Below, one piece after another: positions 42,558 to 58,324 of a DNA stretch of 64,000 bases. Made by a program: the position numbers and the translations under genes. Source of the stretch: Candidatus Goldiibacteriota bacterium HGW-Goldbacteria-1 (lineage in GTDB: Bacteria > Oederibacteriota > PGYV01). The notes under the pieces were generated by a model. That model ran no database searches, had not been told where the DNA came from, and worked only from the letters and a program-made list of their open reading frames with translations. Each line of letters opens with the position of its first letter. The stretch's first letter is position 1. The stretch lies in the NCBI GenBank assembly GCA_002839855.1, contig PGYV01000015.1, positions 30,882-94,881 of the forward strand. The letters run 5' to 3'.

Positions 42558-43098
42558 AAAATAGCGAATTAAGCTATAGGCAGATAAGCATAAGCATAAT
42601 CAAACAACGTAACTTAAAAGCATGCGGCATTGTTTTTAAGTGTATGTAGTGGTAGGCGCGTCCCTTTAGGGCGCGGCAGTTGATTTATTCTTTGTTTTTA
42701 CTTCCGACCCTCCAACTTGCTGACTTGCCGAGCTGCCGAGCTGCAGCCTTCCAGGGTTTGGGTATATTTTTTCAGTACGCGCCGCAAATTGGTAATCTTG
42801 TATCCAAATAACCTTGAAAGCAATAGTCAGTTAACGTCATTGGCAATCGGGAGCCCGCGGCACATACGCGTATGCCGCCGTTGCATTACACTGCTCCTGC
42901 CGTATACACACTATGCGAACGCGGCGCATACTGAAAAAACACACCCAACCCCTGTATTGTCCTTGTCCTTCCAATTTTCCAATTTCGAATTCTCAATATT
43001 TCTCTCGTCTTTGCCGACCCTCCGAGCTGCCGAGCTGCCGCAAAAATGATTTTACAGCAGCCGAATATTGTTGTATCATAAGGGTATATGAGGGAAAA
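42558..43098. repeat. non-coding region with REP hairpin and degenerate repeats
   Basis: Holds AATTAAGCTATAGGC-type repeat fragments and then a GTAG hairpin at 42652-42679 (GTAG, GCGCGTCCC, TTTA, GGGCGCG, GCAG). Two blocks follow of the degenerate repeat CCGACCCTCCnAnCTnGCCGAGCTGCCGAGCTG, at about 42706 and 43013. A 110-codon frame across this area is repeat-derived and not convincing as a gene. Confidence 0.75.
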
Positions 43099-44307
43099 AT
43101 GGAAATAAACAAGATTCTTCAGGTTAAATTTACGGACAGGGAAATTTTAATTATTTCTCTGCCTCCATCCGCGGCAGGCACATTGGCTGCTGTCGTTATA
43201 TCTCTGTCTTCTGGTTTCTCTTTTGCCCAGTTTTTATTGACACTTCTGGCCGGTTTAATTTCGGGTATTGCCGCCGGGCTTGCAGCGGTCTATATTTATG
43301 AAGGTATGCTGTTAAAAAGTGTCAGGGAAAACCAGGAAAAAATGGCTGCAGGTGAGATTATTATTACACAGCCGCTTCTTATTAATTCTTTGGTTCACTG
43401 CGCGGCACCGAAGGTTGTTGAACAAAAAGGAATGACAACCGTAAATGAAGAAGCGTTTCTGCTTATATCCGATAAAATTAATGAGATATCAAGAAATAAC
43501 AATGAACTTATGGAATCCGTGAAAAAGGCAAATAATGACGCGCTTTTTAACGAAGATAAACTGCGCAAAGTAAACGGCATTACTAAAAGTGTTACCAAAG
43601 CAATTACTGTAATAATAGAAGATATTAAAAGAATTAATGACAGGGCGGCAGCAATAGTAAAACTTGCAAAAAGCGGAAGTTCGGTTACCGGTTCGGAAAT
43701 TCAGGCGATGAGCAGTATAAAAAACGCGGTGGTTGAATCCACGGATGTCATAGAAAAATTAAGGTTAAGTTCCAAACAGATAAAAGGCATTGTTAATACG
43801 GTTGCTGAAATTGCCAAAAAGACCAATATGCTGTCGTTAAACGCGGGTATTGAAGCGGCGCGCGCCGGTGAAGCCGGAAAAAGTTTTGCTGTTGTAGCCC
43901 AGGAAATACGCTCTTTGGCGGAAGGCGCCACAAAAGCCACACAGGAAATATCCGAATTTCTTCAGAGAACAGAAGAACTTGCGCAGAAAGCGGTAAATGT
44001 AATTTCCGAGCAAAACAGGGTGGAAGACGCGGTAAATGTGGTATATTCCGCAAGTGACTCGTTTATTAAAATTGTTGAATCGCTTGGTGAAATATCCAAA
44101 ATGCTGGCAGGTATCTACGCCGCGGTTGAAGAACATAAAATTGACAATGATTTATTGGGAATTCTTTCGGGAAATATGACTGAAAAATTAAACGGGCTTA
44201 CCGGGAACATAAGCATTGTCACGGATAAAATGAAGTCCAATGTCATGATGATGGAAGATATTAGAAGTGAAGTGCAGATGCTTAAAAACAACAGGGAGGC
44301 GATGTGA
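43099..44307 (+). CDS. methyl-accepting chemotaxis-like signalling protein without a ligand domain
   Basis: 402 residues from the ATG at 43099, preceded by GAGGGAAAA; longer frames begin in repeat DNA. Two hydrophobic helices (about 15-75) are nearly adjacent, so there is no periplasmic sensor domain. The signalling hairpin tip is well conserved: [38 protein letters not shown], cited as [14 protein letters not shown] and [15 protein letters not shown]. It would contact CheA/CheW-type partners, none of which is nearby. It overlaps the PilZ gene. It may sense membrane state or a partner protein. Confidence 0.85.
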
Positions 44308-44669
44308 TGGAAAATGGGGATCTTTTTATTGAAAGAAGAAAGCACAAAAGAATGGATAAAAAGTGTTCTGTGAAATATAAACTTATTTCGGCTGATGAAA
44401 GCGTTGAAATAAAAAAGACAGCGCTTAAAATGAATTCGGAAAGCGCGGACATAAGCCTTGGCGGAATCAGGATGACTGTGGAAACAAACGCACAGATAGG
44501 TGATATTATCAGGGTGGAAGTGGTTGTGGATGAAAAAAAAGATATAGTCACCACTTTTGCGGAAGTTAAATGGGTTAAAGGGAAAGAAGCTATAAAGGAA
44601 ATAGGGATTGAATTCCTTATTTTAAAGGATAAAGACAGGGAGCTTATTTACAATTTGTTGGGAGATTAG
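44307..44669 (+). CDS. PilZ-domain protein (probable c-di-GMP receptor)
   Basis: 120 residues from the ATG at 44307 (a GTG at 44304 is also possible); AGGGAGG lies upstream. The two ligand motifs are present: an Arg-rich RRKHKR at the start (RxxxR) and ADISLGGIRM (D/NxSxxG) near 50. It is a single domain with no partner domain. It directly overlaps the chemoreceptor-like gene, pointing to a joint pathway in which c-di-GMP adjusts signalling. Confidence 0.87.
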   Translation: MENGDLFIERRKHKRMDKKCSVKYKLISADESVEIKKTALKMNSESADISLGGIRMTVETNAQIGDIIRVEVVVDEKKDIVTTFAEVKWVKGKEAIKEIGIEFLILKDKDRELIYNLLGD

Positions 44670-44722
44670 CCCCTTAAATATAATAAAAATTTGCATAATC
44701 CATTGTGCCGGGGTTATGTTTG

Positions 44723-44751
44723 TTGACACAAAAAATTAAATCTGATAATAT
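44723..44751 (+). promoter_or_regulatory. promoter upstream of the beta-propeller lipoprotein gene
   Basis: Consensus TTGACA (44723-44728), 17 bases, TAATAT (44746-44751). It begins a new unit that can run through five close genes to the hairpin at 51911. Confidence 0.75.
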
Positions 44752-44815
44752 ATTATAATTACAGTAAAAATAGGTATTTTGTAAAGTTTGATCAAAAAAA
44801 TGAAAGGGGCGTATA

Positions 44816-46171
44816 ATGTCCAAAAATGCTATTTTGTATGCTGCAATTATTATTGCGGTTTTTTTATTTCCGGGGTGTTTTGGCGGGCAGCCGGAAGAAG
44901 AAGCCAGCATTGATATAAATATCAGCGAGGAAATTAAAGAGATGGAAGGGCTGCAGAAGCAGATTAAGACACAAAGCACACAGCTTCAGAAAATGCAGCG
45001 GGATTTAAAGACGAAAAAAGCATCCACTGCCGGCGCGAATTCCGCAGAGGTAAAAAAACTTGAAAAACAGATAGAAGTGCAGCAGCAGGAAATTATAGTT
45101 GCTTCAAAAAAAGTCACCACCGTTAAAGCTGAAAAAGGGAAATATGTCTGGTCCATGTTCAGGGGAGTCCCAAGCCATGATTTTTATACGGGATACAACA
45201 TACTTCCGCCGCTTGATTTTAAATGGAAATTCAAGGCCATATCGGGTTTTAAAGCGTCGCCTGTAATGGATGCGGAAAATATTTATGTTGGATGCATGGA
45301 TAATAATTTTTATGCAATTGAAAAAAGCACAGGCCAGGCAGTCTGGAAAACACCCTGTCAGGGCGGTATTTCATCTTCCGCGGCATTATACGGAACTACA
45401 CTATATTTTGGCACGGAGACCGGAATGTTCTATGCGCTTTCTGCTTCCACCGGAAAAGTAATCTGGAGCAAAAAGATAGGCCCAATTCAGGGTTCTTCGC
45501 CGGCGGTATTTTCGTCGGTGGTTTATGTGGGGTCAATGGATAACACCGTTTACGCTATGAACAGAACGACAGGCGAAATAATCTGGAAATACGCAACGCT
45601 TATGCCGGTTGTTTCTTCTCCTACGGTGGCGAACGGGCTTGTATACATTGGTTCAATTGACGCCAATATGTACGCACTTGATGTGGACAGCGGTAAAGTG
45701 GCGTGGCAGTATGCCACGGGCAAGGGAATTGCATCCACCGCAGTTGAAAGCGAAGGGGTGCTTTATTTTGGTTCGGATGATAAAAAAATATATTCCGTGG
45801 ATTCTTTAAGCGGCGCTGTTAAGTGGGCGTTTCAGGCGGAAGGCTGGATAACATCAGGCGTTATTAAAGAAGGCGTATTTTTTGCCGGGTCAAACGACAA
45901 AAATATTTACGCGTTAAATTCGTCAAACGGCAAACTGCTGTGGAAGACTGCTGTTGAAGGCAAGGTTTTAACCACGCCTTTGGCTGTTAATAATATACTT
46001 TACTTGGGCGCGGGGAAAGAAGTGCTTGCGCTTGATTCAAAGACAGGCGAAAAGAAATGGTCACAGAAATACGAATTTAATGTGGTGACGTCTCTTATCG
46101 GCGAAGACGGCATAATTTATTTTGGCGATTCCGACAGCTCTTTTTACGCGCTGGAATCTGTAGCTAAATAA
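44816..46171 (+). CDS. PQQ-type beta-propeller lipoprotein with coiled coil
   Basis: 451 residues. The signal ends in the lipobox FPGC (Cys21). A charged coiled coil follows (about 35-100, EEIKEMEGLQKQIKTQ), then seven or eight propeller repeats of the form VYVGSMDNTVYAMNRTTGEI with a Trp in each, as in BamB and PQQ-repeat proteins. No PQQ or catalytic site is evident, so it is likely a protein-binding scaffold in the periplasm. It begins the run of genes that contains the Hsp70 and GspE-like proteins. Confidence 0.85.
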   Translation: MSKNAILYAAIIIAVFLFPGCFGGQPEEEASIDINISEEIKEMEGLQKQIKTQSTQLQKMQRDLKTKKASTAGANSAEVKKLEKQIEVQQQEIIVASKKVTTVKAEKGKYVWSMFRGVPSHDFYTGYNILPPLDFKWKFKAISGFKASPVMDAENIYVGCMDNNFYAIEKSTGQAVWKTPCQGGISSSAALYGTTLYFGTETGMFYALSASTGKVIWSKKIGPIQGSSPAVFSSVVYVGSMDNTVYAMNRTTGEIIWKYATLMPVVSSPTVANGLVYIGSIDANMYALDVDSGKVAWQYATGKGIASTAVESEGVLYFGSDDKKIYSVDSLSGAVKWAFQAEGWITSGVIKEGVFFAGSNDKNIYALNSSNGKLLWKTAVEGKVLTTPLAVNNILYLGAGKEVLALDSKTGEKKWSQKYEFNVVTSLIGEDGIIYFGDSDSSFYALESVAK

Positions 46172-46190
46172 AAAACGAAAGAAGGCAAAA

Positions 46191-47642
46191 ATGGCATCAA
46201 GAAGAAAGGTGAGATTCAGTTTAAGCTACAAGATAAGCATACTTATTTTTTCCCTTATTCTTGTAACCCTCACCGCTATCGTCGGTTATTATATGACGAT
46301 GAACTGGAATGACAGTATAAATGAAATGAAAAACAGCGCTAAAAAAGCGGCAAAAACTTTAGGCGCGCTTTGGCCTGTGGCGCAGGGCCGGTCCGGAATA
46401 AACTGGGGCATTTATGAAAACTACATGAAACAGTTTGTGCAGATAGATAAAAATATTGTTTTTATGGCTATTATTGACGGCAAGGAAAACGTAAGGGCGG
46501 CTGCGATAAACGACCGGCTGATTAAAACTAAATTTTCAAAAATTAAACTTACCGAAGATAAAAAAGAAACAGTAAAAGCCCTTGCGGGAAATAAAATAGA
46601 TGATACGGTTAAGATTATAGGCAATATAAAAATAAAAGACAAAGACATAGGGCTTGCCACGCTTGTAATAAAGTTTTCCAAATATGGCACTTACAGGGCG
46701 CAGAACATGATGATTTTAAATACATCTATTCTGGCATTCTTTATACTGCTTGCCGGCGGTTTGGGCGCGTGGGGGCTTGCTAAGATTATTACAAGAAATT
46801 TTAATATAATAGCGGGCGGAATGAGAAAAGTGGCGGAAGGAAACCTTGATGTCTCTGTTGATGTGAAAACAAATGACGAAACCGGAGTCCTTGCCGATGA
46901 CTTTAACCGCATGATAGTTGAATTAAAAGAAAAGGTAAGGATAAAAGACGCGTTTGAAACAGTGGCTGACGGTTTGAAAGATATGGACAATCTGAAAAAA
47001 GCTTACGAGACTCTTACATATCAGGAAATGACGGATAAAATTACAAAAGGTTATTATCCGGTTTCGCAGACGGATGATAATAAAACGGTATTTGTGTTTG
47101 TGGACACTTCGGCGTTTGCGGGTTTTACCTATGAACTTATCAGCGAGGAACTTAAGGAAATAATAAAGAAATTTATAGAAAAGATATCATACACCGTACT
47201 GGAATATCAGGGTGCTGTTTTTAAAGTTACGGAAAAGTTTATACTAATCAGTTTTGGGTATCCGTTTAAACACAATGACGATTTAAAGCGCGCCCTTATT
47301 TCCACTGTAGAGATAAGAAAAGAACTTGTGAATATGGTAAAAAGCAAACTGACACTGGGTTATAATGTGGAAGATTTTGATATTAATTTTGTAATAACAA
47401 AGGGAAATATAACCGGTAATTTTGTAGACAGAAAATCCGTTGATGCTTTTAACGCGATTACTGATTACCTGAATTTTGCTTCGCGCTACGGCGAAAAGAA
47501 AAAGTTTAACACAAATATATACGCGTCAAAGCAGATTGCGGATGAAACTTTCGCGCTTGCAAATTATGAAAAAACAGACGATATAAGCATGAATGACGGC
47601 CGTGTGGCCGAACTGTTCAGGCTTAAGGGAACAAAGTTCTGA
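46191..47642 (+). CDS. HAMP sensor with a degenerate class III cyclase-like domain
   Basis: 483 residues. Helix 1 is at about 15-35, a periplasmic sensor follows to ~170, then helix 2 (LNTSILAFFILLAGGLGAWG) and a HAMP domain (about 195-250). The C-terminal ~180 residues follow the adenylate cyclase pattern: VFVFVDTSAF keeps the first metal Asp (D305), but the second metal position is Lys349 in GAVFKVTEKF where active enzymes have FIGD. GNITGNF and LNFASR retain other cyclase landmarks. By motif it should not be catalytically active and may bind a nucleotide or a partner instead. Confidence 0.72.
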   Translation: MASRRKVRFSLSYKISILIFSLILVTLTAIVGYYMTMNWNDSINEMKNSAKKAAKTLGALWPVAQGRSGINWGIYENYMKQFVQIDKNIVFMAIIDGKENVRAAAINDRLIKTKFSKIKLTEDKKETVKALAGNKIDDTVKIIGNIKIKDKDIGLATLVIKFSKYGTYRAQNMMILNTSILAFFILLAGGLGAWGLAKIITRNFNIIAGGMRKVAEGNLDVSVDVKTNDETGVLADDFNRMIVELKEKVRIKDAFETVADGLKDMDNLKKAYETLTYQEMTDKITKGYYPVSQTDDNKTVFVFVDTSAFAGFTYELISEELKEIIKKFIEKISYTVLEYQGAVFKVTEKFILISFGYPFKHNDDLKRALISTVEIRKELVNMVKSKLTLGYNVEDFDINFVITKGNITGNFVDRKSVDAFNAITDYLNFASRYGEKKKFNTNIYASKQIADETFALANYEKTDDISMNDGRVAELFRLKGTKF

Positions 47643-47654
47643 TAAAAGGAAAAG

Positions 47655-48221
47655 ATGGCAAATAAACTTAACTATTATGAACTGCTGGAAATTTATCCGG
47701 CGGCAACACAGGAAGAAATAGACGGCGCTTTCAGGATGATGCTGTACAAATACCATCCTGACCATAATCCGGACAGGCCGGACTGGGCTCATGAAAAGAC
47801 TTCAGAAGTGGTGGAAGCGTATAACATACTTTCCAACTCTTTAAAGCGTAAGATATATAATTTTATAATATTTGCTTCTTTAAAACAGGCGCCTGCTGAA
47901 AAAAAGTTTGGTATTTTTCAGGGTAATGACAAGAAAAAATTTGAAGAGGCCTGTGTAATTTTTAAAGAAGGCGCAGCATCATTTGATACAAATAAAAATA
48001 CCGCGCTGATTAAGTTTCAGCAGGCTTGTGCGGTATATAAATTAAGCGAAGGTTATTACAATATAGGGGTAATTTATACTGTAACCAACAAGCTTATTGA
48101 CGCCAAGAGGGCGTTTGAAGAGGCGATAAAACTGGACCCTGAAAATCAGCACTATAAAAGGGTTATTGATAAGCTTCAGGAACTGATGAGAGAAATTGAC
48201 AGGGTAAGAAAAGCGCAGTAA
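47655..48221 (+). CDS. J-domain protein with C-terminal TPR region
   Basis: 188 residues. An N-terminal J domain (about 6-70) has the essential HPD in YKYHPDHNPDRP near 34. There is no Gly/Phe linker, zinc domain or DnaJ C-terminal domain. The last ~90 residues contain TPR-like helices (EGYYNIGVIYTVTNKLIDAKRAFEEAIKLDP, cited as its start EGYYNIGVIYTV). J proteins stimulate Hsp70 ATPase, and the Hsp70 gene is 24 bases downstream. The TPR part would choose the client, so this is probably a dedicated co-chaperone and not general DnaJ. Confidence 0.87.
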   Translation: MANKLNYYELLEIYPAATQEEIDGAFRMMLYKYHPDHNPDRPDWAHEKTSEVVEAYNILSNSLKRKIYNFIIFASLKQAPAEKKFGIFQGNDKKKFEEACVIFKEGAASFDTNKNTALIKFQQACAVYKLSEGYYNIGVIYTVTNKLIDAKRAFEEAIKLDPENQHYKRVIDKLQELMREIDRVRKAQ

Positions 48222-48245
48222 GAAAACACGGGAAAGGGTGCTTAA

Positions 48246-49964
48246 GTGGCAAAAATTATCGGGATAGACCTTGGAACGACAAACTCTTGTATGGGTTTGA
48301 TGGAAGACAACAGGCTTTTGGTGATACCGAATGACGAAAATTTCAGAACAACCCCGTCGGTAGTGGCGTTCACCAAAGAAGGGCAGATACTTGTAGGCAA
48401 TGCCGCAAAAAGGCAGCAGGTAATGAACCCTGAAAATACTATTTTTTCAATTAAAAGGTTTATAGGCCGTAAATTTAATGACCCTACAGTTGCAAATGAT
48501 TTAAGGCTTATGCCATATAAACTTGTCCGCGCCGCAAACGGCGATGTATGGGTGGAAGTAATGGGAAGGACGTATTCGCCCCCGGAATTATCTGCAATGA
48601 TACTTATGAAGTTAAAAAAAGACGCTGAAAATTATCTTGGCGAAGCCGTGGATAAAGCGGTAGTTACTGTTCCGGCGCATTTTAATGATTCGCAGAGGCA
48701 GGCTACAAAAGACGCAGGCAAAATAGCCGGCCTGGAAATCGTAAGGATAATAAATGAACCCACTGCCGCGGCTTTGGCCAGCGGTTTTGACAGCAAGACA
48801 AAAATGAGAGTTGTAATTTATGACCTTGGCGGCGGAACTTTTGATGTATCCATACTGGAACTTGGGCAGGGAATTTTTAAGGTCTTATCCACAAGCGGCG
48901 ACACGCACCTTGGCGGCGATGACTTTGACCAGGCAATTATAGATCACCTTGTTGCGGAATTTTTAAAAAAAGAAGGAATTGACCTGAAAAATGACAGGGT
49001 TGCGCTTCAAAGGTTAAAAGATGCGGCGGAAAAAGCAAAGATAAACCTTTCCACGCTGGAATCCGTGGAAATAACGCTTCCATTTTTAGCAGCTACAAAT
49101 GACGGGCCAAAGCATCTTCAGACAGTTCTTTCAAGGCCCACGCTGGAAGCAATAACGAAAATAATAGCCGAAAAAACAGCCGGCCCATGTGAAATGGCGC
49201 TTAATGACGCGGGGATGAGGGCAAGCGATATAGATGAAGTGGTCCTTGTAGGCGGGCAGACAAAGATGCCCCTTGTACGTGAAGTGGTAAAAAGAATTTT
49301 CAGAAAAGACCCTTTTTCCGGCGTAAATCCGGACGAAGCGGTTGCGTCAGGCGCTTCAAAACAGGCGTCTGTTTTAAAGGGTGATATCAGGGACATATTG
49401 CTGCTTGATGTTACCGCGTTTTCGCTTGGTATTAAAACAGAAGGCGGTATCTTTTCAAAAATAGTTGAAAAAAACAGTTCCATACCGCTTAGAAAAACAG
49501 AGGTATATACCACTACGCAGGAAAATCAGTCTTTTGTAAGGATAGAAGTTTTCCAGGGTGAAAAACCAATGGCTTCTGATAATAAGATGATTGGTACTTT
49601 TGACCTTGTGGGAATTCCTCCCGGGCCTAAAGGTTCGGCAAAAATAGATGTTATTTTTGACATTGACGCGAACGGAATCATAAGGGTTTCCGCTAAAGAC
49701 CAGTCTACCGGAAAAGAGCAGGCGATAAAAATAACGGCGGACAGCGGGCTTTCAAAATCGGAACTTGAAAATAAAACCAGGGAAATTGGCGCTGAATTTG
49801 CAAAGAAAATCTCTAAAGGCGAGAAGATTCAGGCGAAACAGGATTACAAAGAAGTTCCCGCGCAGGATGGCGAAGGCGGCGGTTTAGCGTCTGCGACCGA
49901 AGAAGAAAGCGAATCAAAAAAGAAAAAATCAATTTTTGACATATTCAAGAAAAAAGAGGGGTAA
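48246..49964 (+). CDS. Hsp70 (DnaK-like) with shortened lid
   Basis: 572 residues, about 60 fewer than usual DnaK. The ATPase domain is complete ([13 protein letters not shown] at the start; [33 protein letters not shown]). The interdomain linker LLLDVT is near 392, and the substrate-binding beta sandwich follows. The helical lid is reduced to one partial helix, ending in a charged tail [19 protein letters not shown]. The start is GTG. No grpE is near. Together with the J-TPR gene it looks like a specialised pair serving the neighbouring membrane or GspE-like proteins. Confidence 0.9.
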
Positions 49965-49967
49965 ACA

Positions 49968-51872
49968 ATGAGCAAACCCAAAAAGAACATGCTTATCGGT
50001 GAAATGCTGGTAGACGAAGGCATCATAACAAAAGAACAGTTAAAAGACGGCCTTGAAGAACAGAGGCGCACAGGAGAAAAAATAGGGGAGATACTTGTAA
50101 GAATGGGGTATCTTTCAAAAGAAATTTTGTGGACTTTTCTTGGATATCAGATGGGAGTCCCGTTTGTTAACCTTGATGAAGTAACCGACATTAAGCAGGA
50201 TATTTTAAAACTTCTTCCCGAACAGCTTATGAGAAATGAAAAACTTATACCCGTTACAAGGCATGGCAGGGTAATTACCGTTGCTATGGCGGAACCAATG
50301 AACTTTCTTGTGATAGATGATTTAAAAGCAACAACAAAAAGTGAAATTGACGTAAGGCTGGCACCATCTGAAGAGATTTTAAAACAGATAAATAAATATT
50401 TTGGATATAAGGCGGAAGAAACCGGCGCGGTGGCAAAAGCAAGCGTTGAAGACCTTGATGATATTTTATCCGCGCCAATGGGAAATTCTTCCAGGCAGGA
50501 ATCTTCGGGTATGAAGATTCAAAGGTCTATTTATGGAGAGCAGCCTCCTCCTCCGGCGCCTTCGCAGCCGGCTGCTGCGCCCGCGCAACAATACGCGCCT
50601 CCGCAGCCGCAGTATTCTCCGGCTCCGCCTCCTCCGCCGCAGCAGTACGCACCTCCGCAGCCGCAGTACACACCGCCGCCGCCACAGGTTCAGACAGCAC
50701 CTAATATGGCACAGGCAGTTGTATCGCAGGATACGCCGGTTAACGTGTTTTTAACCACGCTGCTTTCAACCGGGTATGACGCCGGCGCCACGGATATTCA
50801 TATAGAGCCGCTTGCCGATAAATGCCGGATAAGAAGAAGGATAGACGGCACCTTATACGAAGTGGAATCGCCGCCGCGCACCCTTTATAACGGACTTTTA
50901 AATAAAATAAAAGAACTGGCGCAGATGAATCAGGCGGAAAAATCCGCGCCGCAGGAAAGCAAACTTAAAATCCGCGTGGGCGGCAAAGAAATTAATATGG
51001 CGGTATATACATTCCCCACTTTGTTTGGTGAAAAGATAGTCCTTAAAATAATGAGGACAGATGCAGCAGTTTTAACCCTTGACCAGAGCGGAATGGAAGA
51101 CGACATGGTGGAAACATACAGAAGGTTTATTAAAAAGCCGCACGGGCTTATAATCCTGTCAGGCCCCACAAACAGCGGAAAAGAAACCACAATGCATTCC
51201 ACCCTTGTGGAAATGAACAGGCCGGATATCAATATTTTCTCCATAGATGACACAAGCACCGGCTATGTGGTGCCGGGGGTAAATCAGACTAAAGTCAGCA
51301 GAAAAAATTACGGGCAGGTGCTTCATTATCTTGCGGAACAGGACTGTGATGTAATAACAATAGGGGATATATCCAATAAAGAAACGGCAGAAGCTGTCTT
51401 TGATATAATTGCCAGCGGGCATCTTTTAATCTCGCGCCTTCGCGCGTCTGACCCTTATCAGGCGCTGCAGACAATAGTGAATTTTGGAATTGAACCGTAT
51501 ATAGTTTATTCAAATACAATTCTGGTTATGGCACAGCGCCTTGTAAGAAAGATATGTACAAGCTGCAGGCAGCCATATCAGGCAGCGCCGGATATTGTAA
51601 AAATGCTTGGCGGGGAAGAAAGCAAGTCGGTTACTTTATATAAAGGAAACGGGTGCGCAAGCTGCGCCCAGACCGGATATAAAGGAAGGACAGCCGTGTT
51701 TGAAGCCGTTGTCATGACCGATAAAATTAAAGACATGCTTATGGCCAAAGAGCCGCTTAAAAAGATAAAAGAAGAAAATGCCAAGACCGGATTAAAGACT
51801 CTTAAAGAAGCGGCATTATTGAAGCTGATAGAAGGCACCACGTCCCTTGAAGAGTACATGAAGATAAATTAG
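49968..51872 (+). CDS. GspE/PilB-like protein with degraded ATPase motifs
   Basis: 634 residues. An N-terminal MshEN domain (about 5-150; two copies of the pattern GEMLVDEGIITKEQL and GEILVRMGYLSKE) can bind c-di-GMP in relatives. A Pro/Gln/Tyr-rich linker spans ~185-240, then the secretion-ATPase core. Key residues are changed: Walker A is GPTNSGKETT with Glu406 after Lys405, where Thr or Ser is needed. The Asp-box reads SIDDTST rather than EDPVE. Walker B is GDISN (466-470) rather than GEIRD, and the His box is SRLRASD rather than STLHTND. The zinc cysteines (CTSC, CASC) remain. It is probably a non-motor regulator or scaffold. Confidence 0.85.
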   Translation: MSKPKKNMLIGEMLVDEGIITKEQLKDGLEEQRRTGEKIGEILVRMGYLSKEILWTFLGYQMGVPFVNLDEVTDIKQDILKLLPEQLMRNEKLIPVTRHGRVITVAMAEPMNFLVIDDLKATTKSEIDVRLAPSEEILKQINKYFGYKAEETGAVAKASVEDLDDILSAPMGNSSRQESSGMKIQRSIYGEQPPPPAPSQPAAAPAQQYAPPQPQYSPAPPPPPQQYAPPQPQYTPPPPQVQTAPNMAQAVVSQDTPVNVFLTTLLSTGYDAGATDIHIEPLADKCRIRRRIDGTLYEVESPPRTLYNGLLNKIKELAQMNQAEKSAPQESKLKIRVGGKEINMAVYTFPTLFGEKIVLKIMRTDAAVLTLDQSGMEDDMVETYRRFIKKPHGLIILSGPTNSGKETTMHSTLVEMNRPDINIFSIDDTSTGYVVPGVNQTKVSRKNYGQVLHYLAEQDCDVITIGDISNKETAEAVFDIIASGHLLISRLRASDPYQALQTIVNFGIEPYIVYSNTILVMAQRLVRKICTSCRQPYQAAPDIVKMLGGEESKSVTLYKGNGCASCAQTGYKGRTAVFEAVVMTDKIKDMLMAKEPLKKIKEENAKTGLKTLKEAALLKLIEGTTSLEEYMKIN

Positions 51873-51910
51873 TAAGATGTTAACTGAAAAAGTTATTAAT
51901 GACATTTAAC

Positions 51911-51940
51911 AGCCGCGGGTATTTGGCCCGCGGCTTTATA
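51911..51940 (+). terminator. hairpin after the GspE-like gene, likely terminator
   Basis: Arms AGCCGCGGG (51911-51919) and CCCGCGGCT (51927-51935) pair over nine bases around TATTTGG, followed by TTATAAAA. The T run is short, so termination may be partial. Confidence 0.65.
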
Positions 51941-51964: not shown

Positions 51965-53728
51965 ATGAAAAAAAACATATTTTTAGTGGCAATCATATTT
52001 AGCGTAATAACCTGCGTAAATGCGGCTGACCTTAGAAACTTTACTGTTGTTATGCCGGCCGGTAATCCAACCGCGGGCGCGGAAATACCGCTTACTATTA
52101 CGGCAATAGGGACGGATAATCTGACAAAGGCGGATTATACGGGAAATGTGACTGTAACCGCATCAGTGGGTGATATCACGTTTGTTGAAACGGGCGCAGC
52201 AGCTTCAACTGCTTTTACGGCAGGAAAATGGATGGGAAAAGTGAAGATCCTTGGCGCTGATCCCGCGCTTTTAATGACGTTTACAGATGTATCAGGTGCT
52301 ACGGGCACCGCGACAAAGCTGGTAAATCCGGGGCCTTATTCAAAACTGCTTGTTCTTACTCAGGGGCAGGAATACGCGCCGGGTACGGCTTTAGGTTCTT
52401 CAGGAATACCTGAAACCCTTATGACATACCGTGAATTTTATGTGACGGTCACCGCTTGTGATGATTATTATAACAGGATAAATTCCGGTTATCCGTCAGC
52501 TGTATGGCTGCAGTCAAGCGGCGCTTTATATGAAAAATATTCAGTCACTCCAACCGCCACTGATTTTGCCGTAGCAGACATTCCCGGCACCACAATTTAC
52601 GCCATGACGCTGATGCCTAATCCCGATATCGGAGGGCTATTTGATATAAATGCCATGGATTATGCAAATTCCGTTTTTGGAATAAATCAAAGGACGTTTT
52701 CAACTTTAAATACGTATTTTATCTGGCCGGAAATAAACAACATCACATATACTGCGGCGGAAATTCCAGTATTTGCGGGAAGTTTTTTGACAGTAACAGT
52801 TAAAGCGTCAAATTATTCAAGGGAAGCGGAAAAAGGGATTCTGCCTGACTTTGATAAAGTAGTGTCAATTAAAGCTGTTGAATATGACAATCATTCGGCA
52901 TTTTTGCAAACTCTTTCGCCGGATAACGTGGTTGTAACGGCAGGGCAGGGGGATGCAATTGTTCAGTATCTGAAAATGGACAGGATAAAAATAATGCCGG
53001 ATTGTACTGATTATGATAACGGCACAGGCACTTATTATTATGTAACCAAGTCACCGTCTGATGTGGTGCAGGTATATGCGGCTGCACCGCAAAGTTTTTC
53101 GTTTACAGCGGATAAAGTGCAGATAAAACCCGATGAGACCGCGAATTTAAACGTGGCTGTGTTTGATGCGTACATGAATCCTGTTTCAAGGACTGCTGTT
53201 TCGTTTGATATTCTTCCGGCAGGGACAGGAATTTTAAGCGTGACAGATACAATAACCGGTGATTATGATTATTCAATAAATGTAATGGGCGGAACGGCTT
53301 CGTCAGTTTATACTGCGCCGTTACTTGCACCTACAAATGTGACTATTACAGTTACAGTAGATGGAATAGCCGCATCGCAGTCAATTGTACTTGAATTTAT
53401 TTCCGCCACTTCCACGGCAGATAAACAGACGGTAAAGAACACGCCAAACCCGTTTAACCCGGATAAAGGCGGCACAAAGATAGGGTATTACCTTGAAGCG
53501 GACAGCAAGGTAACCTTTAAACTTTTTAATATGTTTGGCGGACTGGTATGGAGCAAGCAGGTGCAGAAAGGCGAAGGTTTAGGTTTAAAAGGCCCCCGCG
53601 AATTATTATATGAAGGCCGGACCGACGGCGGGTTTAAGATAGGGGTAGGGCTGTATGTGCTTAAAATTTATGTTGAAAACGACAGTGAAAAATATGTACT
53701 GGAAAGAAAGATAGCTGTTAAAAAATAA
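51965..53728 (+). CDS. secreted Ig-like repeat protein with C-terminal FlgD-type domain
   Basis: 587 residues from the ATG at 51965, giving a signal peptide (VITCVNAADL); a longer frame from 51899 crosses the hairpin. The body consists of beta-sandwich segments (PAGNPTAGAEIPLTITAIG; DETANLNVAVFDAYMNPVS) like invasin or Big-type domains. The C-terminal ~90 residues begin NTPNPFNPDKGGTKIGYYL and end YVLKIYVENDSEKYVLER, the FlgD Ig-like module often found at the ends of surface proteins in such bacteria. It is likely exported to the cell surface. No enzyme motif was seen. Confidence 0.75.
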   Translation: MKKNIFLVAIIFSVITCVNAADLRNFTVVMPAGNPTAGAEIPLTITAIGTDNLTKADYTGNVTVTASVGDITFVETGAAASTAFTAGKWMGKVKILGADPALLMTFTDVSGATGTATKLVNPGPYSKLLVLTQGQEYAPGTALGSSGIPETLMTYREFYVTVTACDDYYNRINSGYPSAVWLQSSGALYEKYSVTPTATDFAVADIPGTTIYAMTLMPNPDIGGLFDINAMDYANSVFGINQRTFSTLNTYFIWPEINNITYTAAEIPVFAGSFLTVTVKASNYSREAEKGILPDFDKVVSIKAVEYDNHSAFLQTLSPDNVVVTAGQGDAIVQYLKMDRIKIMPDCTDYDNGTGTYYYVTKSPSDVVQVYAAAPQSFSFTADKVQIKPDETANLNVAVFDAYMNPVSRTAVSFDILPAGTGILSVTDTITGDYDYSINVMGGTASSVYTAPLLAPTNVTITVTVDGIAASQSIVLEFISATSTADKQTVKNTPNPFNPDKGGTKIGYYLEADSKVTFKLFNMFGGLVWSKQVQKGEGLGLKGPRELLYEGRTDGGFKIGVGLYVLKIYVENDSEKYVLERKIAVKK

Positions 53729-54331: not shown

Positions 54332-54421
54332 CAGAAAGCCTTTTAATTTATGGCTATTTTTGTGCGAAACTAAATTTATTTGTTGTTGTCTAAACGCTTA
54401 ACTAAAAATAGGAGTTTTATT

Positions 54422-57400
54422 ATGAAAAATGTATTAAAAAAAATTAAAATAGCTGCACTTTTTGCCTTTGTTTTTTGGGGCATATCTATAAGCAGTATTT
54501 TTGCCGGTGCCAAAATAACATCTTTGACAATGAATCCTCCTACGCCTGTTTTTGGGCAGTTGGTTACTGTAACTGTGCAGTATTGTGCTAATGCATATGT
54601 TGCAAATATGTTTGCTATGGCTTTTAGTACTCAGCCGACTTTGGTTGACGCACGATTATCAGGACTTGGGCAGGTTTTTGTTGTATCAAGGGCTGGTATA
54701 GATGTGGCAACATCCAAACCGTCATTAACTCCCGGCGGTGCAATTGACTGGACAGCAAACACAGGGTGGGGATATATGAACCCTTTTCCGTGTACAATTT
54801 GTAACGGTACCGACGGCGGGCATATTGCTACGGATGTATATGTTGTTCATGTGCCGTCTGCTGATAATTTCCCGGGATGTAATAATACTAATTTATACCT
54901 TCATGCCGGTTTTAAAGACGCCAATATTCAGGAACCTGACTGGCATACAATTGGAGCCTGCGAATCTGAATCACTGACATGGTCGCTGCCTTTAATGCCC
55001 CCTGACTTTACCCTGCATAAATCAGCAGAAGGCGTTATTGAAGATGTTGGTGATTTAATTCTTTTTTCAATTGATTATACATACCAGAACGGGCCGCTTA
55101 CAATTACTGATTCCATTCCCGGCGCCGGCAAGCTTGAATTAGTATCTGTAGGCCCGTCTTCAATAACCGGAGGCAGTGTAACTCATCCGGGAGTTGGCGC
55201 GGATAACGGAATTGTAACGTGGACACTTGATTCAAGAGCGGGTGATAAGGGTGTGGCGGAAGGTACTGTATGGATGCTTTTAAAGGTAAAAACTGCATTT
55301 AATCCGGGGGAACCGGTTTTAAATACCGCTACGGGAAACATGTCGGGTACCATTAAAACAAGCGCTGTCACAATTGCGGCAGGCAAAGCGGCGACAAGTA
55401 TTAGGAAAAGTCAAAGTGATAACATTGTAAGGTATGGCGACACAATCACGTATTTTGTTGAATATGAAATAAATGGTATGAAACTGAAAGCTTACAGGCC
55501 GATGGATGATATACCGATTGGCACTTATTCGTCAAGTCCTCCTCCCGGTTTTAAATTTGCTCCTGAAAGCGGAACCAATGGTACTTGGTATATTGAAGAC
55601 GCTTGTAATACAGGCGATAGAATAATAAGGGGAGACGCAGACGCTGGAAAGTATCCTGCATTATTGCTTGATGGGCTGGATGCGGAGTTTTGTGACGGCG
55701 GTATTGTTCAGACGGACGCAATGATAGGTTATGGGACGGCTGCTTATGAAGGTGCGGACGCGCTGGTTATTATTAGAAATAATGGTTTAACCGGAAGTCT
55801 TTCAAGGGCGTATGCCGTTTTATTATCTGTTGATGAAGCGCCGGGAGTTGCAGGTACTTTTGTGAAGTTTCAGAAGACTGTGGGTACTACTACTACATGG
55901 CCGGCCGGTGCTGCAACCCCGCATATCTTGTCAAATAAATGGTATAGGGTTAAAGTTGTAGTTGCGCAGGGAGCACCATATACGTTTAATATAAAAGTCT
56001 GGCCTAAAGGCGATCCGGAACCTACGGGATATTCACTTGTTTACACAGACAATAATGGTGCTGCTGACGGTATGTCTTGCACAAGCGGTGATACCTGGAC
56101 CCCCGGTTTTGGTGAACAGAGCGGTGCTAATGGTGATCCGCAGGATAGTTATAATAATTTCATTGTTTTTGAGCCAAAGACATCTTCAAATTCTTACGTG
56201 TATGACACTGTCCCGCAAGGTGTAACTTATCTGGGCGCAAATACCGCTCCCACTTCATTTACAGGCAATGTTTTAAAGTGGAATGTTGCAGGTGCAACCA
56301 GTGGGACCTACGAATGGTGGGGGGAAGTCACCGGCTGTGATCCTCTTACTAATAAAGCTTTTATTGCGGGAGATTCACCATCAGTTGGTTCAAATGAAGT
56401 AATAGCGGATGTTCTTTGCGGGACGCCGACAAACACAGTAACGCTTACAGCTACGCGCACAAACACGCCGTCGGCTACACCCACGCCGTCAAGGACGCCG
56501 TCGCCCACTTCAACCGCCACAAGGACTAATACTCTTACAATAACACCGTCTTCGTCAATGACCTCGACGCGCACTGTAACTGTCACGCAGACAACAATGC
56601 CTACTAACACTGCCACGCCTACAATGACGCCGTCTTCCACGGCAACGCTTACAAACACCACTACAATTACTTATACGGCAACCCCTACAAGGACGGCCAC
56701 TACAACAGTAACATATACGTCCACGGTGACTGCAACAAGGACAAGCACGCCTACAAGCACTGCAACCCCGACAATAACAATTACATACTGGGAAAGCATG
56801 ACCAATACACCCACGGTTACAGTGACAAGGACTATTACAGAAACTGCAACTCCGACAGTGTCATTTACGGATACCGCGACTGTGACATTTACATCCACTG
56901 TTACGGTAACGCGCACTGCCACGCCTACAAGTTCGCCGACTCCGACAATAACAGTTACGTATTGGGAAAGTATGACAAATACGCCAACTGCCACGCCTAC
57001 TGCTACTATAACACTTTCTTCTACAGCCACATCGTCAATGACAGCCACACGTACATCAACACCTACAAATTCAATTACGATGACAGTAACGGAAACAGCA
57101 ATGAACACGGCAACAAATACGCGCACTGCCACGCCTACCGCGACGGTATCCATGACTTCAACGGAAAGTTCCACTATGACAGCGACAAGGACAATTACGC
57201 ATACCGCGACAGGAACGGTAACCTGGACAGACACTCCCACGATTACTTTAACTGCTACAGAAACGGCCACATCCACGGAAACGCTGACAATAACAGAAAC
57301 CATGTCGCCTACATCTACGCCGACAATCACGCCGACGCTTCCGCCTTTCCCGTACATGGTAAGGATAGGCATATATAATGAAGCGGGAGAGCTTGTAAAA

Positions 57401-58324
57401 ATAGTTGCGGAATCAAGGGCCAATAAACTTATGTCTGTGGTTAAATTCCTTACGGTTGCGGAAGGTAATAATTTACCGGGCACGGCAGAAGGTGCTGAAT
57501 CTGAAGTGGTAACCAACAAACAGGTCATGGAAATATTTATGGGCGGCCTTGAAACCCCTGAAAGCATAGGTACAGGCTTCACGGTTTTTGAATGGGGCGC
57601 GACAAATAACGCCATGCAGGATATCAGAAACGGCGCGTATTACATAAAAATAGAACAGAAAGACGAATATGGACATTTAAACATATTAATTAAAGACATA
57701 CAGGTAATTAAAATAGAAGAGTACGTGGAAATAAATATTTTTAACAGCGGCGGCGAGCTTGTAAGGGTAATAAAAGAAAACCGCGCCAGCGATACAGACA
57801 GGGTTTCTTTGAAAATAGATGACATGCTGATTATTGATAAAGATGGCGGCGACCTTACACTTGTGTACGGCGAAGGAATAGGCGAATATGTACGATGGGA
57901 CGGCCTTAATAATCAGGGCAAAGCCGTATCAAGCGGAACTTATGAGATTCAGGTGGTTGTGAAAAATATTCAGGGGCAGACAATAGAGGCAAGCAAGACG
58001 GTTATTATACTGAACGAAGGAAAGAAATTTTTGGAATCGGTTTCAATCACGCCTAACCCGGTTGATAAGAAAATCCTGCCCGCTGTTCTATTCAGGTGGA
58101 CAGGAACAGGTACGGGAGACATGACCGTAAGTATTTACACAATAAACGGGGAGCTTGTAAGAAGGCTGTCAGCTAAGTTTGAAACGTTCCTTCAGTTTAT
58201 ACCGTGGGATTTAAGGACCGCCAACGGAGATAACGTCGCGCAGGGGTATTATGTGGTTGTTTTTGAAACGGTTAATGACGAAGGTTTTACAGACAGAAAA
58301 GTTGAAAAATTAGCGATAAAATAA
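54422..58324 (+). CDS. giant secreted surface protein: DUF11-like and LamG-like N-terminus, Thr/Pro linker, FlgD-type C-terminus
   Basis: 1300 residues from the ATG at 54422 (AGGAG upstream; signal peptide to about SIFAGA). Residues ~30-660 hold beta-sandwich modules: DUF11-like stretches (VGDLILFSIDYTYQNGPLTI; YGDTITYFVEYEI) and a lectin-like segment (NKWYRVKVVVAQ; IKVWPKGDPEPTGY). Residues ~668-976 are a Thr/Pro-rich linker with YWESMTNTPT twice. Three FlgD-like units follow (YNEAGELVKI, FNSGGELVRV, YTINGELVRR) ending VEKLAIK. It is probably displayed outside the cell, with a glycosylated linker (inference). The N-terminus is paralogous to the gene at 58764 and the C-terminus to that at 61172. 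Confidence 0.82.
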   Translation: MKNVLKKIKIAALFAFVFWGISISSIFAGAKITSLTMNPPTPVFGQLVTVTVQYCANAYVANMFAMAFSTQPTLVDARLSGLGQVFVVSRAGIDVATSKPSLTPGGAIDWTANTGWGYMNPFPCTICNGTDGGHIATDVYVVHVPSADNFPGCNNTNLYLHAGFKDANIQEPDWHTIGACESESLTWSLPLMPPDFTLHKSAEGVIEDVGDLILFSIDYTYQNGPLTITDSIPGAGKLELVSVGPSSITGGSVTHPGVGADNGIVTWTLDSRAGDKGVAEGTVWMLLKVKTAFNPGEPVLNTATGNMSGTIKTSAVTIAAGKAATSIRKSQSDNIVRYGDTITYFVEYEINGMKLKAYRPMDDIPIGTYSSSPPPGFKFAPESGTNGTWYIEDACNTGDRIIRGDADAGKYPALLLDGLDAEFCDGGIVQTDAMIGYGTAAYEGADALVIIRNNGLTGSLSRAYAVLLSVDEAPGVAGTFVKFQKTVGTTTTWPAGAATPHILSNKWYRVKVVVAQGAPYTFNIKVWPKGDPEPTGYSLVYTDNNGAADGMSCTSGDTWTPGFGEQSGANGDPQDSYNNFIVFEPKTSSNSYVYDTVPQGVTYLGANTAPTSFTGNVLKWNVAGATSGTYEWWGEVTGCDPLTNKAFIAGDSPSVGSNEVIADVLCGTPTNTVTLTATRTNTPSATPTPSRTPSPTSTATRTNTLTITPSSSMTSTRTVTVTQTTMPTNTATPTMTPSSTATLTNTTTITYTATPTRTATTTVTYTSTVTATRTSTPTSTATPTITITYWESMTNTPTVTVTRTITETATPTVSFTDTATVTFTSTVTVTRTATPTSSPTPTITVTYWESMTNTPTATPTATITLSSTATSSMTATRTSTPTNSITMTVTETAMNTATNTRTATPTATVSMTSTESSTMTATRTITHTATGTVTWTDTPTITLTATETATSTETLTITETMSPTSTPTITPTLPPFPYMVRIGIYNEAGELVKIVAESRANKLMSVVKFLTVAEGNNLPGTAEGAESEVVTNKQVMEIFMGGLETPESIGTGFTVFEWGATNNAMQDIRNGAYYIKIEQKDEYGHLNILIKDIQVIKIEEYVEINIFNSGGELVRVIKENRASDTDRVSLKIDDMLIIDKDGGDLTLVYGEGIGEYVRWDGLNNQGKAVSSGTYEIQVVVKNIQGQTIEASKTVIILNEGKKFLESVSITPNPVDKKILPAVLFRWTGTGTGDMTVSIYTINGELVRRLSAKFETFLQFIPWDLRTANGDNVAQGYYVVVFETVNDEGFTDRKVEKLAIK

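What the first reader, a model, noticed from the sequence alone, without database searches (positions are those of the whole stretch)
43099..51935. Possible undescribed signalling assembly built around an Hsp70/J pair and a non-motor GspE-like protein
Seven same-strand genes run from a chemoreceptor-like protein and PilZ through a promoter into propeller lipoprotein, HAMP/cyclase-like sensor, J-TPR, Hsp70 and GspE-like protein, ending at a hairpin. Two of the proteins carry folds whose ligand is c-di-GMP in relatives (PilZ, MshEN), and two have enzyme folds with lost catalytic residues. Pilus or type II secretion operons would normally include pilins, a platform protein and a secretin; none is present. 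A dedicated chaperone pair could control assembly of a membrane-to-cytoplasm regulatory complex. Function is inferred from neighbourhood only.
Basis: partly seen in the sequence, partly recalled or inferred. Interest (0 to 1): 0.8.

Follow-up and report, generated by a model that had tools for sequence, protein, structure and literature searches.

The report
Conserved chaperone operon with broken pilus motor
An uncultured bacterial phylum keeps, always in the same order, five genes for an outer-shell propeller protein, a membrane sensor, a dedicated chaperone pair and a pilus-motor relative that has lost its engine residues, which looks like a regulatory switch made from old pilus parts and has not, as far as I could find, been described.

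Summary
Window 44816-51872 encodes a PQQ-propeller lipoprotein, a HAMP sensor with a cyclase-like domain, a J-TPR protein, a lid-less Hsp70 and a PilB/GspE-like protein with an MshEN domain. This five-gene order is conserved in 10 genomes of the same order and in 7 genomes of two distant families, where the flanking genes are entirely different. The MCP/PilZ pair upstream belongs only to the window's order, so the core has five genes, not seven. The PilB-like protein forms one clade inside PilB. All 17 members tested lack several catalytic residues that 43 canonical PilBs of the phylum keep without exception, yet it is under strong purifying selection. The window genome has a complete type IV pilus locus and two intact PilBs elsewhere, so this protein is not its motor. 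The two distant families keep pilin-PilMNOPQ but lack PilC, PilD (at the locus) and every canonical PilB, and their PilT has decayed too. Best reading: a pseudo-motor, handled by its own Hsp70/J pair, that regulates a pilus-derived envelope complex, comparable to PilB-Hsp70 signalling in Myxococcus and cyanobacteria. The gene unit is shown. The mechanism is inferred (about 0.45).

The parts
43096..44307 (+). MCP-like protein, two membrane helices, no sensor domain, conserved signalling tip (lineage-specific neighbour)
   Evidence: Pfam MCPsignal 2.1e-30; start set by homologues; tip motif intact in most relatives
44304..44669 (+). PilZ domain protein with RxxxR and DxSxxG c-di-GMP motifs (lineage-specific neighbour)
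   Evidence: Pfam PilZ 3.3e-12; both motifs kept in 11 of 11 relatives
44723..44751 (+). promoter-like site upstream of the five-gene core
   Evidence: TTGACA-17-TAATAT with extended -10; consensus match only
44816..46171 (+). PQQ-type beta-propeller lipoprotein with coiled-coil stalk (core gene 1)
   Evidence: PQQ_2 8.8e-51; lipobox pattern found in 22 of 23 relatives
46191..47642 (+). two-TM HAMP sensor with degenerate class III cyclase domain (core gene 2)
   Evidence: HAMP 2.9e-10; CyaB profile hit 1.1e-13; AlphaFold/Foldseek CyaB TM 0.74; alignment A2
47655..48221 (+). J-domain/TPR co-chaperone, HPD motif intact (core gene 3)
   Evidence: DnaJ 3.1e-17, TPR; HPD in 21 of 21 relatives
48246..49964 (+). 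specialised Hsp70: intact ATPase and J-interface motifs, lid missing, conserved C-terminal [13 protein letters not shown] tail (core gene 4)
   Evidence: HSP70 1.8e-216 matching profile 1-539 of 599; tails; motifs; second Hsp70 besides canonical DnaK
49968..51872 (+). PilB/GspE-like pseudo-motor with MshEN domain, Pro/Gln-rich linker, decayed catalytic site (core gene 5)
   Evidence: T2SSE 7.2e-80, MshEN 1.6e-14; catalytic table; monophyly
51911..51935 (+). GC-rich hairpin after core gene 5 (weak terminator or attenuator)
   Evidence: -21.1 kcal/mol, z -4.23
51965..53728 (+). secreted protein, conserved downstream neighbour in the window's order only
   Evidence: homologues directly after core gene 5 in L046, L048, L050-L052, L055-L057
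53854..53877 (+). strong terminator-like hairpin after the downstream gene
   Evidence: 10-bp stem followed by T8

Best explanation
The five genes are one conserved regulatory unit. Shown: the gene set and order, the single origin of the PilB-like and Hsp70 branches, purifying selection, loss of motor residues, and a second, specialised Hsp70 with an intact J interface. Inferred: the propeller lipoprotein and the periplasmic domain of the HAMP protein sense envelope state. The HAMP/cyclase-like domain passes this on as a conformational, non-catalytic signal. The PilB-like protein acts as a c-di-GMP-responsive ring-shaped pseudo-motor that docks on the pilus inner-membrane complex (PilM to PilO) without driving extension. 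The J-TPR/Hsp70 pair remodels it, loading or releasing it. In the window's order this would tune a working type IV pilus or polysaccharide output together with the adjacent PilZ and MCP. In the two distant families it would act on a motorless pilin-PilMNOPQ complex.
For: Ordered cassette in 10 genomes of the order and 7 of families f10/f11 with unrelated flanks (nuo/MCP/PilZ versus smc and recJ-/2-isopropylmalate-synthase-like genes). One clade each for the PilB-like and Hsp70 proteins, support 1.0. 43 canonical PilBs keep 11 of 11 catalytic positions while all 17 cassette proteins lost the second Asp-box Glu, the Walker-B Arg and the N2D Arg, and 16 of 17 lost the catalytic Glu. dN/dS 0.02-0.05 for the core genes. 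Two intact PilBs, PilT, PilC, pilin, PilD and PilMNOPQ elsewhere in the window genome. Cassette genomes checked also hold PilM-PilQ genes. Precedents: ATPase-dead PilB still signals, and Hsp70 StkA acts between the pilus and the MCP-like DifA (PMC5544727; PMC4319316); cyanobacterial DnaK1, partner of DnaJ3, binds PilB in a two-hybrid assay in Nostoc (PMC9239167); the PilMNOP alignment complex relays a surface signal to a cyclase (PMC12288467).
Against: No direct interaction evidence. The cassette is not linked to any pil gene. MshEN half-motif 1 has Leu for Arg in the window's order. Walker-A Lys and, in f10/f11, Walker-B Glu and the His box are often kept, so weak ATP turnover cannot be excluded. 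The Hsp70 tail is not more amphipathic than shuffled sequence. The MCP/PilZ link is absent in f10/f11.
Confidence: 0.45

Rival explanations
1. The PilB-like protein is a real but divergent pilus extension ATPase whose assembly needs a dedicated chaperone pair; in f10/f11 it is the only PilB and serves the reduced pilus locus.
For: In f10/f11 no other PilB exists; several members keep Walker-A Lys, Walker-B Glu and His box; pilin and PilMNOPQ are present.
Against: PilC and PilD are missing from the f10/f11 pilus locus and only Tad-type platform proteins were found; two f11 members have Walker-A Lys to Arg and His to Asn; the f10/f11 PilT is itself degenerate; in the window's order intact PilBs are present.
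Confidence: 0.15
2. The unit controls polysaccharide or adhesion through the chemosensory system (Dif-like): PilB-like and Hsp70 act upstream of the MCP, whose CheA/CheW lie elsewhere in the genome.
For: Same kinds of parts as the Myxococcus PilB-StkA-DifA pathway; the genome has CheA, CheR, CheC and CheW, including an MshEN-CheW fusion; the MCP signalling tip is intact in most relatives.
Against: MCP/PilZ linkage holds only in the window's order; no polysaccharide genes in the cluster; the pathway is assigned by analogy.
Confidence: 0.2
3. The five genes are an envelope quality-control or secretion-assistance unit: the Hsp70/J pair keeps secreted clients soluble and the PilB-like ring is only a scaffold; the propeller acts like BamB.
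For: BamB-like propeller lipoprotein; a conserved secreted protein follows in the order; Hsp70 catalytic motifs are intact.
Against: BamB equivalog cut-off not reached (198 versus 285 bits); the downstream secreted gene is not part of the core; does not explain the conserved MshEN and HAMP domains.
Confidence: 0.12
4. Neutral remnant: genes kept together by operon inertia without a joint function.
For: None beyond slow gene-order change.
Against: Retained order while both flanks changed completely and strong purifying selection.
Confidence: 0.03

Closest known systems
Myxococcus xanthus PilB-StkA(Hsp70)-Dif (MCP) exopolysaccharide pathway (PMC5544727, PMC4319316)
   Same: PilB with MshEN-type motif acting as signal without ATPase; Hsp70 acting between pilus and an MCP-like receptor
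   Different: There the signal protein is the working motor itself and the genes are scattered; here a separate decayed PilB paralogue, a J-TPR partner, a propeller lipoprotein and a HAMP pseudo-cyclase form one operon
Cyanobacterial DnaK1/DnaJ3 system (PMC9239167)
   Same: Specialised Hsp70/J pair besides the housekeeping one; DnaK1 contacts PilB and controls polysaccharide
   Different: No pseudo-motor, propeller or HAMP protein reported with it
PilB/MshE type IV pilus extension ATPases
   Same: MshEN plus T2SSE domains, about 33% identity to the genome's own PilB, nested in the PilB tree
   Different: Catalytic Glu, Asp-box Glu, Walker-B Arg, Arg fingers and (in the order) His box lost; no pil gene nearby
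Class III adenylyl/guanylyl cyclase receptors (HAMP-cyclase, CyaB-like)
   Same: Membrane-HAMP-cyclase fold architecture
   Different: Second metal Asp (in GDG) not kept; predicted inactive
BamB
   Same: Periplasmic lipoprotein with PQQ-repeat propeller
   Different: Below the BamB equivalog score; long coiled-coil stalk

Membership tests
[quoted passage not shown]
[quoted passage not shown]
   43 of 43 canonical PilBs intact, 0 of 17 cassette proteins
[quoted passage not shown]
   the pilus locus lies on another contig
[quoted passage not shown]
   needs biochemistry and genetics
MshEN c-di-GMP receptor | Domain-level match to the c-di-GMP motif model | tested here: met
   NF053729 64.5 bits, cut-off 38
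MshEN c-di-GMP receptor | Both RLGxxL...Q half-motifs with Arg | tested here: inconclusive
   Arg replaced by Leu in half 1 and Lys or Arg in half 2 in the order; Arg then Lys in f10/f11; Gln kept
Canonical DnaK | Hsp70 ATPase and J-interface residues | tested here: met
Canonical DnaK | Complete helical lid, housekeeping DnaK role | tested here: not met
   profile match ends at 539 of 599; a separate full-length DnaK exists at C4 and grpE-dnaJ at C4
Class III nucleotide cyclase | Cyclase fold | tested here: met
Class III nucleotide cyclase | Two metal-binding Asp residues | tested here: not met
   first Asp kept, second replaced
BamB | Lipoprotein with PQQ propeller at BamB equivalog score | tested here: not met
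   TIGR03300 198 bits versus 285; blade count not determined (fold job unfinished)
Myxococcus/cyanobacterial Hsp70-PilB signalling | Dedicated Hsp70 physically or genetically linked to a PilB protein | tested here: inconclusive
   gene linkage shown; interaction not testable here
Myxococcus/cyanobacterial Hsp70-PilB signalling | Output is polysaccharide or motility | not testable with these tools
   needs mutants

The most novel reading that the evidence does not exclude
A type IV pilus machine has been turned, in whole lineages, into a static trans-envelope sensor: both motors (PilB-like and PilT) have decayed, PilC and PilD are gone from the locus, and the pseudo-motor is now operated as a switch by its own Hsp70/J pair under control of a propeller-HAMP-pseudo-cyclase sensor.
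Probability: 0.25. Interest if true: 0.88.

Novelty: new variant of a known kind. Interest (0 to 1): 0.68.

Why it matters
Hsp70 proteins have been tied genetically to pilus motors in Myxococcus and cyanobacteria, but the client and the logic are unknown. Here evolution has put a dedicated Hsp70, its J partner and a motor-dead PilB paralogue in one operon with an envelope sensor, which points to the PilB-like ring as the client and makes the question directly testable with a few purified proteins. The parallel decay of both pilus motors in related families suggests the pilus envelope complex can outlive its motor function.

Tried and rejected
Housekeeping DnaK in an odd place: rejected, a full-length DnaK and grpE-dnaJ exist elsewhere. 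The window genome's missing PilB: rejected, two intact PilBs at C4. Defence system: no PADLOC match for any of the eight genes. Hsp70 tail as amphipathic membrane anchor: a hydrophobic-moment test gave no support (fractions 0.52 and 0.97 of permutations at least as high). Type II secretion or Tad: no such genes in the cluster; Tad is on other contigs. A literature search for the gene set found nothing relevant. Finding the cassette outside the phylum: the J-TPR model hit 0 of 339 other genomes, but only the top eight candidates per genome were scored. Propeller fold prediction did not finish. The genome-contig scan found only one close relative.

Full report
Observation. The window encodes, on one strand, an MCP-like protein, a PilZ protein, a PQQ-propeller lipoprotein, a HAMP sensor, a J-TPR protein, an Hsp70 and a GspE/PilB-like protein. 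The sensor's C-terminal half has a class III cyclase fold. The hairpin after the last gene is real, but the next gene (51965-53728), a secreted protein, is conserved at the same place in the window's order and is followed by a much better terminator-like hairpin.

Conservation. Using the HAMP sensor as bait in the 45 genomes held for the phylum and reading the neighbourhoods, the order propeller, HAMP sensor, J-TPR, Hsp70, PilB-like is complete in 10 genomes of the window's taxonomic order (G000, G033, G034, G037, G038, G039, G040, G041, G043, G044) and in 7 genomes of families f10 and f11 (G013-G019). Four more (G012, G035, G036, G042) are cut by contig ends without contradicting the order. 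In f10/f11 the sensor is only 25-30% identical and the flanks are unrelated (smc upstream; recJ- and 2-isopropylmalate-synthase-like genes downstream, named from their sequences by eye), so five genes were kept together while everything around them changed. The MCP-PilZ pair is upstream only in the window's order, 4 kb away in one genome (L048), and is not near the cassette in f10/f11. One genome of the order, G032 (89% complete), gave no match. A J-TPR profile found relatives in f7, f13, f15 and f16 too, next to a related Hsp70 in most, but in other contexts (rplU-rpmA-obg-proB ... nadD in f15/f16, by eye); it found none in 339 genomes of other phyla at the sensitivity used.

The PilB-like protein. 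Of 43 canonical PilB sequences from the same phylum, every one keeps the eleven catalytic positions examined (Thr/Ser allowed at one). All 17 cassette proteins have lost the second Asp-box Glu, the Walker-B Arg and the N2D Arg; 16 of 17 have Asp for the catalytic Glu; the window's order has also lost the Walker-B Glu (to Asp), the His-box His (to Arg) and both Arg fingers. They form one clade within PilB with support 1.0. They are not pseudogenes: dN/dS is 0.02-0.05. Identification as 'non-motor' is therefore well supported by sequence for the window's order and probable for f10/f11, where some residues remain.

The chaperone pair. The J-TPR protein keeps HPD in all relatives; the Hsp70 keeps nucleotide and J-interface motifs, lacks the lid, and ends in a conserved short basic-hydrophobic tail ([13 protein letters not shown] in the order, KKKGLFGLFGG in f10/f11) after a variable linker. 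It is the second Hsp70 of the genome; the canonical DnaK is elsewhere. What the tail binds (TPR partner, pseudo-motor or membrane) is open; a simple amphipathicity test did not favour a membrane anchor.

Pilus context. The window genome has, on another contig, pilZ-pilT-pilC-pilin-pilD-pilMNOPQ, with two intact pilB genes on a third contig and Tad-like genes elsewhere. The same pilT-pilC-pilin-pilD-pilMNOPQ-aroC locus occurs in other genomes of the order with intact PilT. In f10/f11 the locus is pilT-pilin-pilMNOPQ-aroC: pilC and pilD are missing, platform-protein hits are Tad-type pairs, no PilB other than the cassette protein exists, and PilT has lost its His box and Walker-B Arg (six PilTs and a seventh, G013; one keeps an Arg near the Walker-B site, G019). 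So the cassette co-occurs with PilMNOPQ where this was checked, but not always with working motors.

Mechanism. The closest precedents are Myxococcus PilB, whose ATPase-dead form still signals for exopolysaccharide upstream of the Dif MCP with Hsp70 StkA in between, and cyanobacterial DnaK1/DnaJ3, where DnaK1 binds PilB and the pair controls polysaccharide. The pilus alignment complex is itself a surface-signal relay in Pseudomonas. By analogy I propose that the cassette's PilB-like ring is a regulatory pseudo-motor on that complex, set by c-di-GMP and by the propeller/HAMP/pseudo-cyclase sensor, and loaded or removed by its own Hsp70/J pair. In the window genome, 13 GGDEF matches, an intact PilZ and an MshEN-CheW fusion in the chemosensory cluster fit such wiring. 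Every step after 'one conserved unit' is inference.

Limits. No interaction could be modelled. The library of papers is partial. The propeller fold job did not finish.

Noticed in passing
L200, L203, L204 (families f10/f11): Type IV pilus locus with pilin and PilMNOPQ but no PilC, no PilD, no canonical PilB and a PilT that lost its His box: a motorless pilus complex conserved across two families.
   Followed up: yes
L126:14783-15388 (window genome, contig C7): MshEN (c-di-GMP motif, 61.6 bits, cut-off 38) fused to CheW inside a chemosensory gene cluster; a possible direct c-di-GMP to chemosensory link.
   Followed up: partly
window 48246-49964 and relatives: Specialised Hsp70s end in lineage-specific conserved tails: [20 protein letters not shown], and LTGDMINxxLKDPD in f15/f16; function unknown.
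   Followed up: partly
L111-L113, L115, L117-L119: J-TPR plus Hsp70 pair placed between obg-proB and nadD in families f15/f16, without the sensor and PilB-like genes.
   Followed up: partly
L065:7886-9324: The HAMP sensor of G016 is split over two frames (frameshift or assembly error).
   Followed up: no
L038 and L064: The HAMP-sensor sequence in G015:C313 is identical to that of G018, suggesting cross-contamination between assemblies.
   Followed up: no
window 54380-58324: Large secreted protein with long Thr-Pro-type repeats, with homologues near the cassette in some relatives (L056, L057).
   Followed up: no
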